Shown here: positions 244 through 60,194 of the stretch, one piece after another
Numbering within the stretch: position 1 is the stretch's first letter
Layout of the letters: each line of letters opens with the position of its first letter
Source of the DNA: a virus
Strand: one strand, 5' to 3'
IMG/VR virus record: IMGVR_UViG_3300043811_000231
Coordinates: 1 to 60,527 of that record
DNA: 60,527 bases
Position numbers and translations under genes: made by a program
Notes under the pieces: model-generated
Told to the model about the DNA's origin: nothing
The model's input: the letters and a program-made list of their open reading frames with translations, nothing else
The model's database searches: none

Positions 244-3159
244 CTACATTGAAATAGCCCCAAAAGTTTTAAACGTTGGTGATGCGATAGACCCTACCCA
301 CTGCCACCAAACCGTTCCATCGTTAACAAACCCAGAAGTAGCGCTCGGCGCACTCGAAGCGGTAGTCCCAGGAACGACGCACTTGTAAATGTTATTCCCC
401 ACCGTATAACGGTAATCTGAAAGTCGAACAGCCGTAGTCGCCGCCCACGCCCCATAATCGCCAGGCGCAAAACCGCCCGTAGCTGTAAATCCACCGGCCA
501 CCGTACAAACGAGCCCAATATACCCTCCCGCAGTCGGATTGGTTGCCAACACCTGATCACCCACACGCCAAATTCCAGTTGTAGGAGCGGTTGTTCCTGA
601 CTGATAAAACGTGCGAGGAAGCGTCTCTTGCTGAACTCCGTCAAAAAATGAAAGCTGATTCGAATTTACAATCACATCTCCAGTGCGAAGATCGTACGGG
701 CCGCTAACGACACCGCCTAGATCCGTATTCGGAATGATAAGGCGACCTGCGGAAACCGTTCCATGCGAGGACTCGTCCCGGTGTAGTAGATTATACCCGT
801 CAATCGCATACGGCCCGGTCTGAACGTACGTATGGTCCCGATTACGGCCGATCTGTAGCATCGTCACCGTTCCCTGCTGGTTGCTCCCTCCGTTCAACGT
901 CATTGCGCCCACGGAAACTTGAATATTGCCGGTAAGGCTGGAATTATAAGCCTCGAACGGAAGAGCGAACTGCGTACCCGCCCCGTAAATTCCTTTGGCC
1001 AAAAGATACCCATTTTGGTCAGTCACATTTACAACCACATATTGGTTAGTACCGCTATTTCCAAAAGGAACGCCGCCAGTAATAACATAACCGTCATTAC
1101 CAGTATCCGACGAAGACGAAATCGTCGTATTTTGATAAATCGTAGTCGCGGTCGTGTCGTACGCAGACCCACTGGTGGTCAGTCTAAACGCGTTGCCGCC
1201 CATCGCTGGCAAGTATGGAGGGTTTGTACTCGTGTTTGCAACGGTGACATTTGATCCGATCGTCCAACCTCCCGTGTTAGGATTGGAATTATAGGTCAAA
1301 AGGTTCTCAGGAGCTCCTGCTTCATCCTGATCAAAAATAAATTGGGAAGGCCCCGACCAAATCGAATAACTGCACTGTTCCTTGTGTATAAAGGAAGCAT
1401 TAGAACTTGTGTTTTCAAATAAACGACCACTAAAAATCGTATTTTTTTCACGCAGGCTTAAAAACTGAGCCTGATCTACCGCCAAACCGCCAGGATTTGT
1501 ATTGGGGTTGTTTATACTAAAAACACAATTATCTATAACGACGTTCGTATGCCCACCGCTGGTTTGAGTGTACGACGTATCACCGGATTGGTAGGACGCC
1601 GCTTCCACAATGTACGACCACGAAGCGTAATCAGACTGTGACTGCGTAGGTGCAACATACGCAACAGTCATCGAACCGTTGGTTTCATTCGCTTTGGTGG
1701 TAGTGGTTGGACCTGAAGAAGCCGAAGACGTACCACCAGAAACTACGCGATATGTGTTACCACCGTTCGTTAGAAACTGCTGTCCCTGATAAACCGTTGA
1801 AGCCGCCCAAGCCGTCAGAGTTCGTTGATTCATCCCGGCAAAACTGCAATCTCGGAACGTCACATTTCGTCCAGTACCGCCATTATTGTTAATTCGAAGT
1901 GCCACGGCGCACCCTTCCGAACGAACGCCGTTAAACGCAATAGGATCCCCCACACCCGTAAATTCCAAAGCAGCGCACATGTTCGGAGAAGACCCCCCGA
2001 TGCCGATGTTACCCCCATAAACATAAAACCCTGCGCCATTGTTGCCTTGAGATAAATTAGCCAACGGATTCAAAACTCGAATGCACGCCAATGGCCCCGT
2101 CTGAGCCGTCCCAGAATTCACGCCTATCGAACAGTCATAAACAGTGATACAAAACGAATCCCCGCCGTATACCGCGAGTCCGTACTGATTCGATTGAAAA
2201 TTACACCGGTAAAAAGAAATAAATTCCAGATTTCCGTTGGCCGGCTGCTGATTGATTTGAACACAAGTTGAAACGTTGTTCACGTAAACGTGGTCAAATC
2301 CTTCGGCACTCCCGTGACCTTGGAGGAGCACGCCGCATACGTTCCCATTGCCGTTAATCGAAAGATTTCGCAACATACTGGCGCGATCGTAGGTCTGGCT
2401 GCCCGTAACGCTATCAGGGACATAACAATCAAGTCCCGCAACCCAAGTCGTCGTGAGCCCCGCCGACCCACGCGTAAAAGTATAAACTCCCGCCGAAACT
2501 GAAAGCGTTCCGTGAATATTACCAATGGTTCCAGTTTCACTTCCAGATGCAAGCCACCCCGCCGGCGCCACAATAGTTGTGGCAGAACTATTGGCTCCTG
2601 CAATTGTCGCCCCAGTCGTAAGTTGAAACCCTGAATGTGCGCCCGTAAAAGTGTAGGCAAAAACAACCGCCGGAAGCGTAGTCGGACCAGTGTAAAGTAT
2701 CTGAGAATTCGAAGCGTTGTCCTGAACACCTTGGCCTTCTAATATAAAACCTGATACCCCGGCCGGAATAACAAGAGGCGCTGAAGTTTTACACGTAAAC
2801 CCAGCCGGAATATAGAGAATCCCGCCTTTCCCACCCGACGCCGCCACAGTGGCATTGATCGCAGCCTGAATCGCCGCCGTATCATCGGTTGTACCGTTGC
2901 CAACCGCTCCATACCACGCAACAGAAGCTTGAGTTGGTAAAATATTTTGCGGGAGCGGTCCCCACACCCCGTTCCCATACAAAATAGTGTTCGAAGAAGG
3001 GATCCCGGTACCGAGATTTGTTGGCGGCAAAACTGCCGATCCTTGAGTCAAAGATTGATTAAGCGTAAGTGTCCCGGTGATCGTAGGATTGACTAGCTGC
3101 GCACGACAAACCGTTAAAAACAACTCGCAAAAAAGAAGCATTCGTAAGAACCGTTTCAT
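244..3159 (-). CDS. Tailspike-like protein with pectate-lyase-type beta-helix and a signal peptide
   Basis: 971 residues. Residues 1-20 (MKRFLRMLLFCELFLTVCRA) look like a Sec signal peptide, which is unusual for a virion protein. An adaptor-like stretch follows (NPTITGTLTL, LYGNGVWGP), then near residue 80 the motif GAVGNGTTDDTAAIQAAINA, typical of Pectate_lyase_3-type beta-helix tailspikes that bind or cut surface polysaccharide. The middle is repetitive and Asn/Gly/Ser-rich as expected for a right-handed beta-helix, and the C-terminal part (YRYTVGNNIYKCVVPGTT) resembles carbohydrate-binding tail modules. A promoter at 3166-3194 sits just upstream. The probable role is host-surface recognition or depolymerisation; the catalytic residues cannot be assigned by eye. 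Confidence 0.85.
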   Translation of the reverse strand: MKRFLRMLLFCELFLTVCRAQLVNPTITGTLTLNQSLTQGSAVLPPTNLGTGIPSSNTILYGNGVWGPLPQNILPTQASVAWYGAVGNGTTDDTAAIQAAINATVAASGGKGGILYIPAGFTCKTSAPLVIPAGVSGFILEGQGVQDNASNSQILYTGPTTLPAVVFAYTFTGAHSGFQLTTGATIAGANSSATTIVAPAGWLASGSETGTIGNIHGTLSVSAGVYTFTRGSAGLTTTWVAGLDCYVPDSVTGSQTYDRASMLRNLSINGNGNVCGVLLQGHGSAEGFDHVYVNNVSTCVQINQQPANGNLEFISFYRCNFQSNQYGLAVYGGDSFCITVYDCSIGVNSGTAQTGPLACIRVLNPLANLSQGNNGAGFYVYGGNIGIGGSSPNMCAALEFTGVGDPIAFNGVRSEGCAVALRINNNGGTGRNVTFRDCSFAGMNQRTLTAWAASTVYQGQQFLTNGGNTYRVVSGGTSSASSGPTTTTKANETNGSMTVAYVAPTQSQSDYASWSYIVEAASYQSGDTSYTQTSGGHTNVVIDNCVFSINNPNTNPGGLAVDQAQFLSLREKNTIFSGRLFENTSSNASFIHKEQCSYSIWSGPSQFIFDQDEAGAPENLLTYNSNPNTGGWTIGSNVTVANTSTNPPYLPAMGGNAFRLTTSGSAYDTTATTIYQNTTISSSSDTGNDGYVITGGVPFGNSGTNQYVVVNVTDQNGYLLAKGIYGAGTQFALPFEAYNSSLTGNIQVSVGAMTLNGGSNQQGTVTMLQIGRNRDHTYVQTGPYAIDGYNLLHRDESSHGTVSAGRLIIPNTDLGGVVSGPYDLRTGDVIVNSNQLSFFDGVQQETLPRTFYQSGTTAPTTGIWRVGDQVLATNPTAGGYIGLVCTVAGGFTATGGFAPGDYGAWAATTAVRLSDYRYTVGNNIYKCVVPGTTASSAPSATSGFVNDGTVWWQWVGSIASPTFKTFGAISM

Positions 3160-23705: not shown

Positions 23706-24161
23706 ATGAAAAAACCACTCGTTATCTTTACTCAGCTCTTTTCTTTGGTATTTTGGGCGGTCCTGGGATGGCTCATTCTGACCAAGTGCACGGGTTGTGC
23801 CTCCGTACCTTCCGCGGCCGGCATGCCGACACCCCAGGACACAAACGGGCATGCGGTAAAGTTTGCCCGCGATTATGCAGAGCAGCGCCCTGGCTCAGAG
23901 ATCCTGTTTGGAAAAGGTGTCTCGATGCAGCCGTTTCTTACGTCCGGCATGGCGGTTGTCGTTGCACCGGCGCCGTATTCAACCTTGCGCCGAGGCGATC
24001 CGGTTGTTTACCGTCGCAAAAACGGGCTGCTGGTGTGCCACGTTATTACTGGTTGGTGCCTGAGAGGGTACATTGTGCAGGGTCTAAACAACGAAAAATG
24101 GGACGCAGAATGCGTAACGCCGCAAAACTATATCGGCGTACTTGTTGCGGCATTCAAATGA
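23706..24161 (+). CDS. Signal-peptidase-like membrane protein (S26B type, Ser-His dyad)
   Basis: 151 residues. Residues 6-26 are a transmembrane segment; the rest would face the periplasm. GVSMQPFLTSG (71-81) contains the S-M-x-P box with Ser73 as likely nucleophile. LLVCHVITG (108-116) puts His112 where bacterial signal peptidase I has Lys and archaeal/ER-type enzymes have His. GLNNEKWD (126-133) resembles the GDNN-D box, and TPQNYIGVLV the final strand. All boxes are in the right order at minimal spacing. Known family members cut Sec signal peptides; S24-type regulators share the fold but lack the membrane anchor. Several phage virion proteins carry signal peptides and may be its substrates (inference). 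Confidence 0.7.
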   Translation: MKKPLVIFTQLFSLVFWAVLGWLILTKCTGCASVPSAAGMPTPQDTNGHAVKFARDYAEQRPGSEILFGKGVSMQPFLTSGMAVVVAPAPYSTLRRGDPVVYRRKNGLLVCHVITGWCLRGYIVQGLNNEKWDAECVTPQNYIGVLVAAFK

Positions 24162-24483: not shown

Positions 24484-24747
24484 ATGAATGAGCATGTTAC
24501 AACACCGAGCCTCGGCAAAGAGTATCGTATGCGCTGGACGCGCGGGCAACTTGCTGAAATTGGAATTTTAGCGCGGGTGGACGAAGTTCTCGACCTTCCA
24601 AAAAGCACCCGGATAATCGAATTTGCCTGCCGATGGGATGGCACGCCTGTCGGCCTTGGCCGCGAAGTGGTGGAAGCTTTTGAAGCCTATCGAAAGAGAC
24701 ATGCTTGGAATATCGACTTTGGTTTATTCATTCTCCGTTCGTTATGA
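24484..24747 (+). CDS. Unknown early protein
   Basis: 87 residues, starting 3 nt after the previous stop and overlapping the next by 4 nt. Helical (VGLGREVVEAFEAYRKR) with a Trp-rich start. No recognised family. Confidence 0.65.
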   Translation: MNEHVTTPSLGKEYRMRWTRGQLAEIGILARVDEVLDLPKSTRIIEFACRWDGTPVGLGREVVEAFEAYRKRHAWNIDFGLFILRSL

Positions 24748-25130
24748 CCCCCGAAATTTTCTGCCTCTGCGAAGCCGTCACGATCAAGCACGGCCAGCTG
24801 TGCATCCTGCACACGATCCTAAACGGGAGCTTCCCGCAGGCTCCGGCATTTGTGTCGGTGGCGTTGGCTGCCAAGGTGCGCTTTATGCACAACGAAGAAG
24901 GGGTGCATCGCCTTGAAACGGAAGCGACCAATGCGGACGGTGCGGTGGTGTGGCGCGGCGAAGTTCAAGAGATGAAAGTCTTCGTGGACCGCCAGGAAGC
25001 GCAATACGCTCAGACGGCGTGGCAGGTTGCGGCCGAGTTTTGGCCGGGCACGCACGAATTTTTCCTCCGGGTGGACGGAACAGTAATCGCATCGGCGCTG
25101 TTTGCCGTGCTGGTGCAACCGCCCCAATGA
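24744..25130 (+). CDS. Beta-rich early protein, DUF6941-like
   Basis: 128 residues: alternating strands (IFCLCEAVTIKHGQLCILHT, FVSVALAAKVRF, HEFFLRVDGTVIASALFAV). The arrangement of an N-terminal AEAVxxxxGxxxIxG-type strand and a late helix-free beta sandwich is like small uncharacterised proteins of the DUF6941 kind; the match is from pattern only. ATGA overlap with the previous gene. The structured element follows 3 nt after its stop. Confidence 0.6.
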   Translation: MTPEIFCLCEAVTIKHGQLCILHTILNGSFPQAPAFVSVALAAKVRFMHNEEGVHRLETEATNADGAVVWRGEVQEMKVFVDRQEAQYAQTAWQVAAEFWPGTHEFFLRVDGTVIASALFAVLVQPPQ

Positions 25131-46537: not shown

Positions 46538-47608
46538 ATGAAAACCAAACTCTTCAGCTTCCTCAGTCTCTTCGTGGCCCTCACTTTTGGCCTCTTTTCT
46601 CCCACTTATGCTGCCGTCACAACCGGCATCACCCAGCCGATTTCGGTGCCGTACAACAACCCCACGCTTACCACGTTCACCATCCCGGCTGTCAATCCGA
46701 ACAACTACCTACTCCGCGGAGACGGCTCTCTGGTATCCGGTTCGGATCTTGCCGCCGTAATTTCCGGCGGTGGGAGTGGCGTTACCGGCTCCGGGTTGGC
46801 AGTTTTTCAAACGGCCCCCACGATCATCACACCTGTAATTTCCACAGGTTTGACGGCATCCGGTTCAGCTGCGAATGATTTTTCGGCTTCCACCGGTGCC
46901 TTTAAAGCATCGTCTGGAGCAACTACGTTGCCCAATCTCACGAGCAACGGCCTTGTTACCACCAGCGGAGGCACCGGTCTATTGTCTGTGACGGCCACGA
47001 CGGGCTCAGGAAGCGCCGTTTTGGCCACAAGCCCTACGTTGGTAACTCCGACCCTCGGAGCCGCATCGGCCACCAGCATCGCCGTCAACGGCGGCATTGC
47101 ACAGCATCTCGTGATCAACACGTCCACGTCGGGCCAGACGCCCGCAGCCACCACCAGGACGTACATTACAGGCTCGGCAATCGCCATCCCGGCGACCGGT
47201 CTTCAAGTCGGCACCGTGCTCCATTGGCATTTCGACATGACGAAAACTGCTGCCGGGTCTGCTTCCAGTACGATCGACATCGCCTTTGGAACCGCCGGCA
47301 CCACGGCTGACACGGCGCAAGTTTCCTTCACCAAACCCGCCGGCACGGCCGCATCCGACGAAGCGTTTTGCGAAGTCGAGTGTGTCATCAAGACCATCAA
47401 TGCTTCGACCGGCGTGGCCATTGGTGAATTCACCATGGGCCATAATTTATCAGCCACCGGTCACGCCACTATTCCTTTCGTGGCGGTGAACACCACTTCA
47501 GGCTCGTTCAACACGGTTTCGCCAACCTTTGTTGGCCTGTGTATCACGACCGGCGCCTCCGACGCCATCACGATCAACCAGGTCAGTTCGTACGCGCTGA
47601 ATATGTAA
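46538..47608 (+). CDS. Exported fibre-like protein with a signal peptide
   Basis: 356 residues from the ATG at 46538, chosen because it gives a clear Sec signal peptide (MKTKLFSFLSLFVAL...TYA, cleavage after residue ~25) and lies after the terminator; the open frame upstream is not coding. The mature N-terminus (ITQPISVPYNNPTLTTFTIP) and the repeat-like GLTASGSAANDFSASTGAF, also found in the 766-residue fibre, are tail-fibre-type. The C-terminal ~150 residues form a beta domain. It probably binds a surface or acts as a secreted decoy. Confidence 0.8.
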   Translation: MKTKLFSFLSLFVALTFGLFSPTYAAVTTGITQPISVPYNNPTLTTFTIPAVNPNNYLLRGDGSLVSGSDLAAVISGGGSGVTGSGLAVFQTAPTIITPVISTGLTASGSAANDFSASTGAFKASSGATTLPNLTSNGLVTTSGGTGLLSVTATTGSGSAVLATSPTLVTPTLGAASATSIAVNGGIAQHLVINTSTSGQTPAATTRTYITGSAIAIPATGLQVGTVLHWHFDMTKTAAGSASSTIDIAFGTAGTTADTAQVSFTKPAGTAASDEAFCEVECVIKTINASTGVAIGEFTMGHNLSATGHATIPFVAVNTTSGSFNTVSPTFVGLCITTGASDAITINQVSSYALNM

Positions 47609-56556: not shown

Positions 56557-57180
56557 TTAATTTGTAAAACAGGCATTTATCGCGGCTTCGTAGTTGGGAA
56601 AAATGTGATGCGCTCGGACGCTAAAGATCGGAACCCCGGGCGCCGGCGAGATGCTGACCGTATTCGGTATGCTCTGGTAACCAGGCGCGGCCAGAGGAAC
56701 GATGTCTCCCTCCACCCACACGTGCGATAATACGTTGGCTTTGTTGAGCACGTCCGCACTGACCAACCGCGGACACGCAAAAACAACCGCCGGAATACCA
56801 AGGATAGCAGAGAGAGTTATGGCCAGCGGACCCCCGCGGCTGTGCCCACAAACGCCGCCGATTTCGTAAGCGTTGAGCGGTTTGCCGGAGAGCCATCGCC
56901 ACGAACGCACTGTCTGCCAGATGCCACGCGACATTGCACCGAGCGGTGTATCTACCGGCAAGAAGTCAAAATCAAGAATCCACTCCTCGCCGTCGCGTGT
57001 ACCAGCGATGCCTAGAATCGGCTTACCCCCAGGCCCCGGTACGAGCGCACCGTACGGCAACGGCCCATCAAGATCGTCGGCGAGCAGCGTGTCGATCAAT
57101 CCCGACTCTGTACCGGAACCGGTAAGAGGGAGATTGTAAGCCGCTTCCTGTGCTGGAAAAAAGGAGCGGGGGTCGAACAT
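56557..57180 (-). CDS. Lipase class 3-like alpha/beta hydrolase
   Basis: 207 residues from the ATG at 57180. ILGIAGTRDGEEWILDFDFL (55-74) matches the oxyanion/core of lipase_3; CGHSRGGPLA (111-120) holds the nucleophile Ser114; VEGDIVPLAAPG (156-167) supplies Asp159; His191 or His192 completes the triad. Together with a holin-like and a lipoprotein gene just upstream it may attack envelope lipid (LysB-like in role). No signal peptide. No muralytic gene is seen nearby. Confidence 0.8.
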   Translation of the reverse strand: MFDPRSFFPAQEAAYNLPLTGSGTESGLIDTLLADDLDGPLPYGALVPGPGGKPILGIAGTRDGEEWILDFDFLPVDTPLGAMSRGIWQTVRSWRWLSGKPLNAYEIGGVCGHSRGGPLAITLSAILGIPAVVFACPRLVSADVLNKANVLSHVWVEGDIVPLAAPGYQSIPNTVSISPAPGVPIFSVRAHHIFPNYEAAINACFTN

Positions 57181-57182
57181 AA

Positions 57183-57635
57183 CTATTGAGGCACAAGCGA
57201 TGGGTTGGCCTGAGCCACGGCGATGGCGGCATTGATTCCGGCGGCAAAGTCTTTCAACTGGCTCCACTCAGCGCCGGTAATAAGAGTCGGGTTACTACCC
57301 GAATTAACCTTCGCAATGTCTCCATTAAGCGCGTCGAGTGCGGACACGCCGGTAAGATCCGCCTTGGTGTGGGACAAATTGGCGATAATCCCGGCCAAAA
57401 TCGTGTTATCGGCCGGCGTAAGCGCCGTGCCCGAGGCAACGCCTGGCAAATCGTTGGCGAGCTGCTGAAGCTGGGACACCGTGGCGATCTTATTTTGAAT
57501 CGAGTACGCCGCGCCAATCTCGCCAGTGTTGGCCACAAGATCAGCTGCGGCCGTGGCTTGAACTTGGGCAGTCGTGCAAGCAGAAGTAAACAGAAGCGCG
57601 AGCAGCGCGACGGATAGGACAAGGACGTTTTTCAT
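57183..57635 (-). CDS. Lipoprotein (lysis or exclusion candidate)
   Basis: 150 residues with a type II signal: MKNVLVLSVALLALLFTSAC, lipid Cys at residue 20. The mature part is helical and Ala-rich (NPTLITGAEWSQLKDFAAGI). Small phage lipoproteins in this position can be o-spanins or superinfection-exclusion factors. It overlaps the holin-like gene by 4 nt. Confidence 0.8.
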   Translation of the reverse strand: MKNVLVLSVALLALLFTSACTTAQVQATAAADLVANTGEIGAAYSIQNKIATVSQLQQLANDLPGVASGTALTPADNTILAGIIANLSHTKADLTGVSALDALNGDIAKVNSGSNPTLITGAEWSQLKDFAAGINAAIAVAQANPSLVPQ

Positions 57636-57892
57636 GGTATGGTTGATTTCGTTGGGTCTGGCAGCGGCTGCCCAGCACGGGCCACCGTTTGATTGAGATA
57701 CGCTAGCAGCGTTGTGCCTGCCAAGGCAAGCACCTTGACGCAGTCGAGAATGATTTGCCCGCGAGTAAGCGCCGACAGTTCGGCCGGTGTAAGGCTGCCA
57801 AAAACGTCCTCAACCGCCATTGCATTCGTCACGACGAAAAAAATCACGCCGGTCAAAATCGACCTTCCGTACTTTTTTAAAAAAGAGAGCAT
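57632..57892 (-). CDS. Holin-like membrane protein
   Basis: 86 residues from the ATG at 57892. Two membrane helices (ILTGVIFFVVTNAMAVEDVF, ILDCVKVLALAGTTLLAYLN) with basic N-terminus and short polar C-terminus, a class II/III holin layout. It begins just after the fibre gene stop and heads the lysis-like cluster. Confidence 0.65.
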   Translation of the reverse strand: MLSFLKKYGRSILTGVIFFVVTNAMAVEDVFGSLTPAELSALTRGQIILDCVKVLALAGTTLLAYLNQTVARAGQPLPDPTKSTIP

Positions 57893-57893
57893 G

Positions 57894-60194
57894 TTAGTTA
57901 ATCTGTTGAATGATACCTTCGGCATTATAAGTTACGCTGGTAAAAGTACCGACCGTGGCAAAAGTAATCGCCGTGGACGCCTTGGCCCGGATGTGGAGGG
58001 GCACGCCCTCGTAAGCCCCGACGCCGAGTGCGTTGGTAATCGTGGTCAGGAAGGTACCAGTCACGCTGGAGAAGTTCATGGTCAGCGTGCGGGAGGTATT
58101 GGTTTCATCCGTGTAGGTGCAGGTGCAGGTGAAGGAGTTCGTGGTCGAAGCGGTGACGTTGATGTTGGCCGACACGATGAAGCTCCCGTCCGCCGCGCCG
58201 ACCGTGTAAGTGGAAAATGCGGCGGCGGCACCTGTCTGCCCGGTGACACGCCCGGAGGCATAGATGGCGGGGTGACCCCAGCCAGCCGTATTTACGTTAT
58301 TATAGACCGACTCCTTCCCTTGGTTAGAGAGAGTCGTGCAGGTAATCTGCCCACTGGCATTGACCCTTCCACCACCGATTCCAACTGAAGTCGTGGCATT
58401 ACCTATCGTATTTGTCACCACCAAAGCTCCTTGGTTGCTCGATCCTGAATTGGTACCGGTCGTCGTGCTGTCCACGATGACAAGTGAATGCGCTCGTGAG
58501 GTAGTCAGGCTGCCCGCCACTGCCGCTGGGCCAACCATCAGAACGTTCTGAATATCTGTCGCGGCGCCGGCAGACGAGTCGGTAAAAGTCGGCGCCCCCA
58601 TGTAAATGCCCTGCAGACTTGTAGCCGTATTAGTACCGGTAACCGTAGTAGTGTAAGCGGGAAGCGTTAGCGTCGTGCCAAAGGTGGTCGCGCCAGATGG
58701 ATTGGCTCCGTAGGTGTAGGCACCTCCTAGGATCGACTGGCCAGAAGCCACATCGAGTGCGTAATCATTGGTAATGGCCAGCGTGGAGGCCGTCGGCTGC
58801 CCAGCGATGTAATTCGTAGCTGCAGTCGTAATCGTTCCGGAGGCGGCGGAGTAGGTGGGGATGCCTTGGTAAAGCGCCGCCACTGTCGCCGGCTCTGAGG
58901 TCTGGAAGGTCGTCGTTGCGGAGGGAATGTTTACCCCGGTCGCAACCGGGGTCGTTGGATTAGTCGAAAAGGTATAAGCCGTGCCTCCAAAGTTGGAAGG
59001 TCCGGCTTCCACGTCGAGCGCCCAAGGTTGGGATAGAATGGCGTTGGTGCCCTGGATCGGCGGCGCACTGATGTCGAGGGTTGAAGCCACGGTGAAGGTC
59101 TGCGAGGCAGATGCGCTGGCAAGAGTGTCCGCCACAAAGTGATATTCGTACTGATCCGCCACGGTGCCGGTCGTCGCCCAGGTGCGCGTAGCGCCTGTCG
59201 TCTGCAACACGGGTACCGTCGTTGCGGCAGTTAAACCTGTATCCGCAGCTGCCGTGATCTGCACGTCAGGTAGCACGCCGGAAGTCTTGGCGGTTGAAGT
59301 AACGGTGAGCGGCGCTGTCGTTGCCGTACCATTAAATACCGCAGGCCCGGTGAATGTCGCAGTGCCCGTTCCAATGGTTACGGATCCAGTAGATGTCTTG
59401 AATGTGCCTGTGCTTGCAGAAAAGTCATTCGCACCCGAACCTGAGGCCGTCAGTCCGCCTGCAATCACAGGCGTCGTCATAGACCACGAGGTGGTCGAGC
59501 TGGCACCAGTGAATGTGTTAGCTGCGTCGGTTCTTGCCACGGTGGCCGATGTTGCCGGGAACGTCATTGTCGTCCCATCAGTTCCGGCCAAGGTCAGGCT
59601 GTTGTTGAAGGTGAGCGTTTTTGCTGCGCCGCCCGTCAACGTGTAGCTGCCAGTCGTGAACGTATCTCCATTGATCGTCGAAGAAAATGTCGCGGCGTTC
59701 GCAACAGTGAGAAGCCCCGCGCTACTTATGCTCATCGCATCTGCCGCAGTCGGGCTTCCTACGATGAAGTGGATGGCATTACTGGTCGTAGTTCCGATGG
59801 CAAGATCTCCGCTATTAGAGTAGAGATAGGTCGCACTCGGCGCATTGAAATTACCACTACCGGTGAACGCCGAGCTGTTAATTCCGAAATCGCCATAGTA
59901 CGTCGTCGCCGTACCGAGGTTATTATTGACGATATAGTCGGCCGAAGCGCCGGTTCCCGCATTCGTATTTTGAAGAATAGATTGAAAATATCCCGTTTGA
60001 CTCCCCGTGATCTGAAGACCTACACCAGTGTCAGTAATCACAGGAATTCCGATATTGACGGGAGCTGTCAATGTGGGGTTGACGGTTAAACCGGCGACTG
60101 AGCTAATGCTGGGACTTCCGCCCAAAGACGCAGATTGAGCACCGAGCCCCAACGCCGTACTCAAAGCAAGTACGAGAAAAATGAATTTTTTCAT
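57894..60194 (-). CDS. Exported tail-fibre-like protein with a signal peptide
   Basis: 766 residues. A Sec signal peptide (MKKFIFLVLALSTALGLGA, cleavage ~19) precedes repeats typical of long fibres: NIGIPVITDTGVGLQITGSQ, GGLTASGSGANDFSASTGTF, and multiple TxTGT strands. The C-terminal ~100 residues (TVGAADGSFIVSANINVTAS, TSRTLTMNFSSVTGTF) are a common fibre-tip domain. It shares the GLTASG block with the 356-residue protein at 46538. ATGA overlap with the 140-residue gene. Secretion of a fibre is unexpected. Confidence 0.85.
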   Translation of the reverse strand: MKKFIFLVLALSTALGLGAQSASLGGSPSISSVAGLTVNPTLTAPVNIGIPVITDTGVGLQITGSQTGYFQSILQNTNAGTGASADYIVNNNLGTATTYYGDFGINSSAFTGSGNFNAPSATYLYSNSGDLAIGTTTSNAIHFIVGSPTAADAMSISSAGLLTVANAATFSSTINGDTFTTGSYTLTGGAAKTLTFNNSLTLAGTDGTTMTFPATSATVARTDAANTFTGASSTTSWSMTTPVIAGGLTASGSGANDFSASTGTFKTSTGSVTIGTGTATFTGPAVFNGTATTAPLTVTSTAKTSGVLPDVQITAAADTGLTAATTVPVLQTTGATRTWATTGTVADQYEYHFVADTLASASASQTFTVASTLDISAPPIQGTNAILSQPWALDVEAGPSNFGGTAYTFSTNPTTPVATGVNIPSATTTFQTSEPATVAALYQGIPTYSAASGTITTAATNYIAGQPTASTLAITNDYALDVASGQSILGGAYTYGANPSGATTFGTTLTLPAYTTTVTGTNTATSLQGIYMGAPTFTDSSAGAATDIQNVLMVGPAAVAGSLTTSRAHSLVIVDSTTTGTNSGSSNQGALVVTNTIGNATTSVGIGGGRVNASGQITCTTLSNQGKESVYNNVNTAGWGHPAIYASGRVTGQTGAAAAFSTYTVGAADGSFIVSANINVTASTTNSFTCTCTYTDETNTSRTLTMNFSSVTGTFLTTITNALGVGAYEGVPLHIRAKASTAITFATVGTFTSVTYNAEGIIQQIN

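What the first reader, a model, noticed from the sequence alone, without database searches (positions are those of the whole stretch)
23706..24161. Phage-encoded signal-peptidase-like enzyme with a Ser-His dyad
An N-terminal membrane helix, S-M-Q-P, a His in the general-base position (LLVCHVITG) and a G-L-N-N box in the right order match archaeal/ER-type signal peptidases rather than the Ser-Lys bacterial type. In the same genome four virion or surface proteins carry Sec signals. A phage enzyme that processes phage exported proteins, or competes with the host one, would be a new system.
Basis: partly seen in the sequence, partly recalled or inferred. Interest (0 to 1): 0.75.

Follow-up and report, generated by a model that had tools for sequence, protein, structure and literature searches.

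The report
Phage membrane signal-peptidase-like protein
An uncultured phage carries a small membrane protein that is a divergent relative of the signal peptidases that cut export tags off proteins in archaea, in the animal and yeast ER, and in some Bacillota; the catalytic serine, histidine and one aspartate are kept, but near relatives of the phage lack the gene and still encode tagged proteins, so a dedicated phage export system is not shown.

Summary
It matches archaeal-type signal peptidase I (TIGR02228, E 8e-9) but at 35.6 bits, below the 51.85-bit membership cut-off. A family-based AlphaFold model (pLDDT 81) has the S24/S26 fold (SipA Z 12.4, LepB 11.1, SEC11C 10.2). Aligned with SipW-type enzymes, Ser73, His112 and a second Asp (D133, S26B spacing) are retained; the first box-E Asp (L127) and the Arg after His (V113) are lost. 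A Ser-His-Asp S26B-like protease is the best reading; activity is untested and a pseudo-enzyme (like SipA) remains possible. The 'new system' is not supported: the gene was not found in 23 related phage records (many are fragments; two of 57-59 kb read in full), yet the two read in full carry at least as many Sec-signal tail-region proteins, and a tailspike signal peptide is conserved in one. Viral proteins of this kind already have database entries (uncultured Caudovirales phage 'Sigpep_I_arch', Bacillus phage BCD7, pandoraviruses). Most likely an accessory membrane protease acquired by one phage; substrate unknown.

The parts
23706..24161 (+). 151-aa S26B-like membrane protein (P0001), the finding
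23718..23786 (+). N-terminal transmembrane helix, residues 5-27; Lys2-Lys3 before it suggest N-in / catalytic domain outside
   Evidence: hydropathy; helix in model; orientation inferred by the positive-inside rule
23886..24158 (+). S24/S26 catalytic-fold domain, residues 61-151
23922..23924 (+). Ser73, presumed nucleophile in G-x-S-M-x-P
   Evidence: invariant in 54 aligned sequences; and with SipW-type enzymes
24039..24041 (+). His112, presumed general base (position of Lys in bacterial S26A/S24)
   Evidence: invariant; aligned with the His of SipW-type enzymes
24042..24044 (+). Val113 where nearly all relatives have Arg
   Evidence: (Arg at 90% or more)
24084..24086 (+). Leu127 where nearly all relatives have Asp (GDN)
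   Evidence: (Asp at 90% or more)
24102..24104 (+). Asp133, six residues after Leu127, aligned without gaps to the second conserved Asp of SipW-type enzymes

Best explanation
The gene encodes a divergent S26B-like (archaeal/ER/SipW-type) membrane serine protease. Shown: the frame, the hydrophobic helix, homology to the S26B/S24 family, the fold in a confident (family-guided) model, and retention of Ser73, His112 and Asp133 at the catalytic positions. Inferred: one helix holds it in the host inner membrane with the domain outside; His112, oriented by Asp133, activates Ser73, which cuts a short exposed peptide next to the membrane. The loss of both Arg113 and Asp127, which in E. coli LepB I recall as a salt-bridge pair (R146-D273), looks like a linked replacement by a hydrophobic Val-Leu pair rather than random decay (recollection, not tested). 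As an accessory gene of the variable small-gene region, in one member of its phage group, it most likely acts on a few specific host or phage membrane proteins during infection rather than as the general signal peptidase. The substrate is unknown.
For: TIGR02228 E 8e-9, SipW model E 2e-3. 53 bacterial relatives aligned: G71, S73, M74, P76, H112, G126, E135 invariant. With two enzymes above the TIGR02228 cut-off (L119, L120; L120 is followed by genes whose products look TasA-like by eye): S, M, P, GD, Y, V, H, G, N, E, second D, V, G invariant, no gap in the box. Model pLDDT 80.8, pTM 0.61; VIA-align: SipA 4n31 Z 12.4, rmsd 1.5 over 87; LepB 3s04 Z 11.1, rmsd 1.9 over 87; SEC11C 7p2q Z 10.2, rmsd 2.1 over 88. 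Best viral match in BFVD is itself called Sigpep_I_arch. Archaeal enzymes need Ser and His but only one of the two conserved Asp (PMC2913515); the residues named crucial are Ser52, His122 and Asp148 (PMC4343526, printed there in the FlaK row), Asp148 being to my recollection the second Asp, i.e. the one kept here. Gene GC 0.54 equals the phage's 0.54.
Against: Below the TIGR02228 cut-off (35.6 vs 51.85) and the Pfam S24 cut-off (21.5 vs 23.3). Yeast Sec11 needs both Asp residues (PMC2913515), and one is Leu here. No close relative was found anywhere, so purifying selection on the active site cannot be measured. The model was made with an alignment of family members and is not an independent proof of fold; the single-sequence model was poor (pLDDT 49). 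No substrate or activity is known.
Confidence: 0.62

Rival explanations
1. A catalytically dead S26-fold protein that binds an exposed peptide or a host membrane partner (for example the host signal peptidase or a receptor) and blocks or chaperones it, as SipA of Streptococcus pyogenes acts without cutting.
For: Two positions conserved in nearly all relatives are lost (V113, L127). The best structural match, SipA, is a non-catalytic signal-peptidase fold with an intact peptide cleft (PMC4049620). Accessory, sporadic gene.
Against: SipA lost the nucleophile and base themselves, whereas Ser73, His112 and Asp133 are all kept, which a pseudo-enzyme need not do.
Confidence: 0.25
2. A dedicated phage signal peptidase that processes the phage's own Sec-exported tail-region proteins, or competes with the host enzyme for them.
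For: The same genome encodes about four Sec-signal proteins and one lipoprotein.
Against: Relatives G002 and G006 have at least as many such proteins without this gene or, as far as tested, any S26 enzyme; the tailspike-like protein's signal peptide is conserved in G002; the gene lies about 20 kb or more from all of them, in a variable block.
Confidence: 0.08
3. An S24-type self-cleaving regulator (LexA/CI/UmuD-like) rather than a signal peptidase.
For: Pfam S24 E 2e-4 and a PHROG repressor family at 3e-3; LexA and lambda CI domains score Z 10-11, not separable by Z from the signal peptidases.
Against: No DNA-binding domain, a membrane helix instead, His in place of the S24 Lys, and better scores with S26B profiles.
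Confidence: 0.03

Closest known systems
SipW / archaeal Sec11 / ER SEC11 signal peptidases (MEROPS S26B, TIGR02228)
   Same: Ser, His and second Asp at the same spacing; S24/S26 fold; N-terminal membrane helix
   Different: First box-E Asp is Leu, Arg after His is Val; score below the family cut-off; chain ends right after the domain, without the hydrophobic C-terminal stretch seen in L119/L120; encoded by a phage
Clostridial S24/S26 peptidases without a membrane anchor (loci L048-L118)
   Same: G-x-SM-x-P, R-R, H, G-x-N and E conserved; 22-32% identity
   Different: They keep GDN and HR, lack the N-terminal membrane helix, have a shorter box without the second Asp and a C-terminal extension
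S. pyogenes SipA (4n31)
   Same: Best structural match, Z 12.4; small catalytic-core fold with membrane anchor
   Different: SipA lost the catalytic Ser and Lys (PMC4049620); here Ser and His are kept
Other viral entries: A0A6J5PXA0 Sigpep_I_arch (uncultured Caudovirales phage), J9PV64 putative signal peptidase I (Bacillus phage BCD7), pandoravirus signal peptidases
   Same: Same fold by Foldseek, E 2e-5 to 2e-3; already annotated as signal peptidases
   Different: Only 14-18% identical; their catalytic residues were not examined here

Membership tests
S26B signal peptidase (TIGR02228) | Whole-protein score above the curated cut-off (51.85 bits) | tested here: not met
   35.6 bits, E 8e-9
S26B signal peptidase (TIGR02228) | Nucleophile Ser in SM-x-P | tested here: met
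   Ser73 invariant
S26B signal peptidase (TIGR02228) | His instead of Lys as general base | tested here: met
   His112 aligned to the family's His
S26B signal peptidase (TIGR02228) | First Asp of the GDN box | tested here: not met
   Leu127
S26B signal peptidase (TIGR02228) | Second Asp, six residues on | tested here: met
   Asp133
S26B signal peptidase (TIGR02228) | Membrane anchor with catalytic domain outside the cytoplasm | tested here: inconclusive
   Helix present; orientation only inferred
S26B signal peptidase (TIGR02228) | S24/S26 fold | tested here: met
   Model pLDDT 80.8; SEC11C Z 10.2, SipA Z 12.4; model built with a family alignment
S26B signal peptidase (TIGR02228) | Cleaves signal peptides | not testable with these tools
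   needs an assay
S26A bacterial signal peptidase (LepB) | Ser-Lys dyad | tested here: not met
   His112 at the Lys position; TIGR02227 only 11.9 bits
S24 LexA-type autoprotease (PF00717) | Score above gathering cut-off and Ser-Lys dyad | tested here: not met
   21.5 vs 23.3 bits; His for Lys; membrane helix at the N-terminus

The most novel reading that the evidence does not exclude
A phage-encoded Ser-His-Asp membrane protease of S26B type, with a Leu in place of the first box-E Asp, that alters the processing of specific exported or membrane proteins during infection, phage or host, as an accessory envelope-remodelling or exclusion function.
Probability: 0.25. Interest if true: 0.6.

Novelty: new member of a known kind. 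Interest (0 to 1): 0.36.

Why it matters
Signal-peptidase-like enzymes are rarely considered in phages. In INPHARED, SipW-type queries find only unannotated, unverified fecal scaffolds. An active one would be a testable way for a phage to change which proteins a host exports or displays. The L127/V113 pair is also a natural test of whether the first box-E Asp is needed in a Ser-His signal peptidase, on which yeast and archaeal results differ (PMC2913515).

Tried and rejected
Close homologues: none by tblastn in viral contigs, genome contigs or plasmids; two weak hits in fecal 'phage' scaffolds, whose neighbours (ABC transporter, HprK-like and PqqD-like proteins, Maf-like, all read by eye) look bacterial. 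Motif scan of viral contigs with Ser codon AGC and the S26B spacing: 7 matches, all chance in unrelated genes; profile-derived patterns in viral contigs found no relatives, so IMG/VR relatives, if any, are too diverged for these scans. Gene absence in relatives means not detected; several of those records are fragments. Single-sequence AlphaFold was uninformative. PADLOC: no match. Sequence search of the PDB with the single protein gave only chance hits; the family profile found SEC11A/C and SpsB weakly, E 0.01-0.03. No promoter consensus was found around the gene. Host could not be determined: no cultured close relatives.

Full report
What is there. The window is a complete IMG/VR record, G000, of 60,527 bases. 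It is a tailed phage: terminase, head-tail adaptor/portal, major head protein, tail proteins, helicase, exonuclease, DNA polymerase, methyltransferase and Holliday-junction resolvase families match. The ORF 23706-24161 (+) is intact and lies in a block of small genes, about 20.6-33 kb, most of which have no detectable counterpart in the two long relatives read in full. Its composition is that of the phage (GC 0.54 vs 0.54), and phage genes flank it on both sides, so there is no sign that it is an assembly artefact of host DNA.

Family. TIGR02228, archaeal-type signal peptidase I, matches residues 71-145 with E 8e-9 and 35.6 bits; SipW matches at 2e-3; the bacterial Ser-Lys model only at 0.16. 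Pfam's S24 model is just under its cut-off. Using the two weak fecal hits as a bridge, 71 bacterial relatives were found, nearly all in Clostridia. In an alignment of 53 of them with the phage protein, G71, S73, M74, P76, H112, G126 and E135 are invariant. At two near-invariant positions the phage protein differs: Arg after the His is V113, and Asp of GDN is L127.

Active site. The clostridial relatives have a shorter box after GDN. Enzymes above the TIGR02228 cut-off (L119, L120) have, for example, KGDANESNDASPV, to which the phage QGLNNEKWDAECV aligns without a gap; Asp133 falls on the second Asp. L120 lies next to genes whose products resemble TasA by eye, as in SipW operons (not tested by profile). 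So Ser, His and one Asp are kept with S26B spacing. A review states that yeast needs both Asp residues while archaeal enzymes need only one (PMC2913515); another names Ser52, His122 and Asp148 as crucial (PMC4343526; the table prints this in the FlaK row, which I take to be a misplaced entry). That Asp148 is the second of the pair is my recollection.

Fold. With the alignment the AlphaFold model reaches pLDDT 80.8, pTM 0.61, with block means of 83-95 over residues 51-150. Foldseek and VIA-align place it in the S24/S26 fold: SipA Z 12.4, LepB Z 11.1, SEC11C Z 10.2, LexA/CI Z 10-11. The fold therefore does not by itself separate signal peptidase from LexA-type; the His, the membrane helix and the profile scores do.

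System. Three long phages were scanned with one simple signal-peptide rule and read by eye. The window has about four Sec-type candidates (244-3159 was seen, the rule missed it) and a lipoprotein; G002 and G006, in which neither the gene nor TIGR02228 is found, and which also lack a PF10502 match, have at least as many in the tail region. The window's tailspike-like protein (244-3159) and its G002 counterpart share the signal peptide region (51% over 77 residues). Several of these peptides end in A-Q (RAQ, GAQ, FAQ, LAQ, SAQ), reminiscent of the Q rule that has been used to argue that P. gingivalis phages rely on the host's signal peptidase (PMC10367356). Export of phage proteins in this group therefore does not appear to need the window's gene. 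What the gene is for is open.

Precedent. BFVD holds 'Sigpep_I_arch' from an uncultured Caudovirales phage as the best viral match, plus pandoravirus and Bacillus phage BCD7 signal peptidases. The idea of a virus-encoded signal-peptidase-like protein is thus on record as annotation; I found no paper that studied one in a phage in the library searched.

Verdict. Observation confirmed; enzyme class supported as 'works like S26B' (probably), formal membership not met by score and by one missing Asp; system claim not supported.

Noticed in passing
window 244-3159 (-), 57894-60194 (-), 46538-47608 (+), 57632-57925 (-), 57183-57635 (-); G002 and G006 tail regions (loci L015-L019): A cassette of long tail-region proteins with Sec-type signal peptides (several ending A-Q) and a lipoprotein occurs across this phage group. 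Tailspike-like virion proteins with export signals are odd, since tails assemble in the cytoplasm. This may be a better lead than the finding itself.
   Followed up: partly
window 244-3159 (-): 971-aa protein with signal peptide followed by a pectate-lyase/tailspike-like motif (PF12708, E 4e-5, below cut-off): possibly a secreted depolymerase or an exported tailspike.
   Followed up: partly
window 56557-57267 (-): 236-aa protein with GHSRGG lipase-like motif (PF01764 E 0.009, below cut-off), conserved at 39% in relative G006.
   Followed up: no
loci L048-L118: Clostridial S24/S26 peptidases without a membrane anchor keep the Ser-His boxes and GDN; one open frame runs on into an ABC transporter (L103) and another begins with an HprK-like part (L075), read by eye. 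They look like maturation proteases of peptide export clusters.
   Followed up: no
window 24705-25130 (+): DUF6941 protein (PF22091, E 5e-12) just downstream, with a homologue in relative G002.
   Followed up: no
MT835590.1 (L002), MT839594.1 (L003): Unverified 'Bacteriophage sp.' fecal scaffolds appear to be bacterial DNA by their gene content; the S24/S26 protein in MT839594.1 is the same as one in [Ruminococcus] torques (L070).
   Followed up: partly
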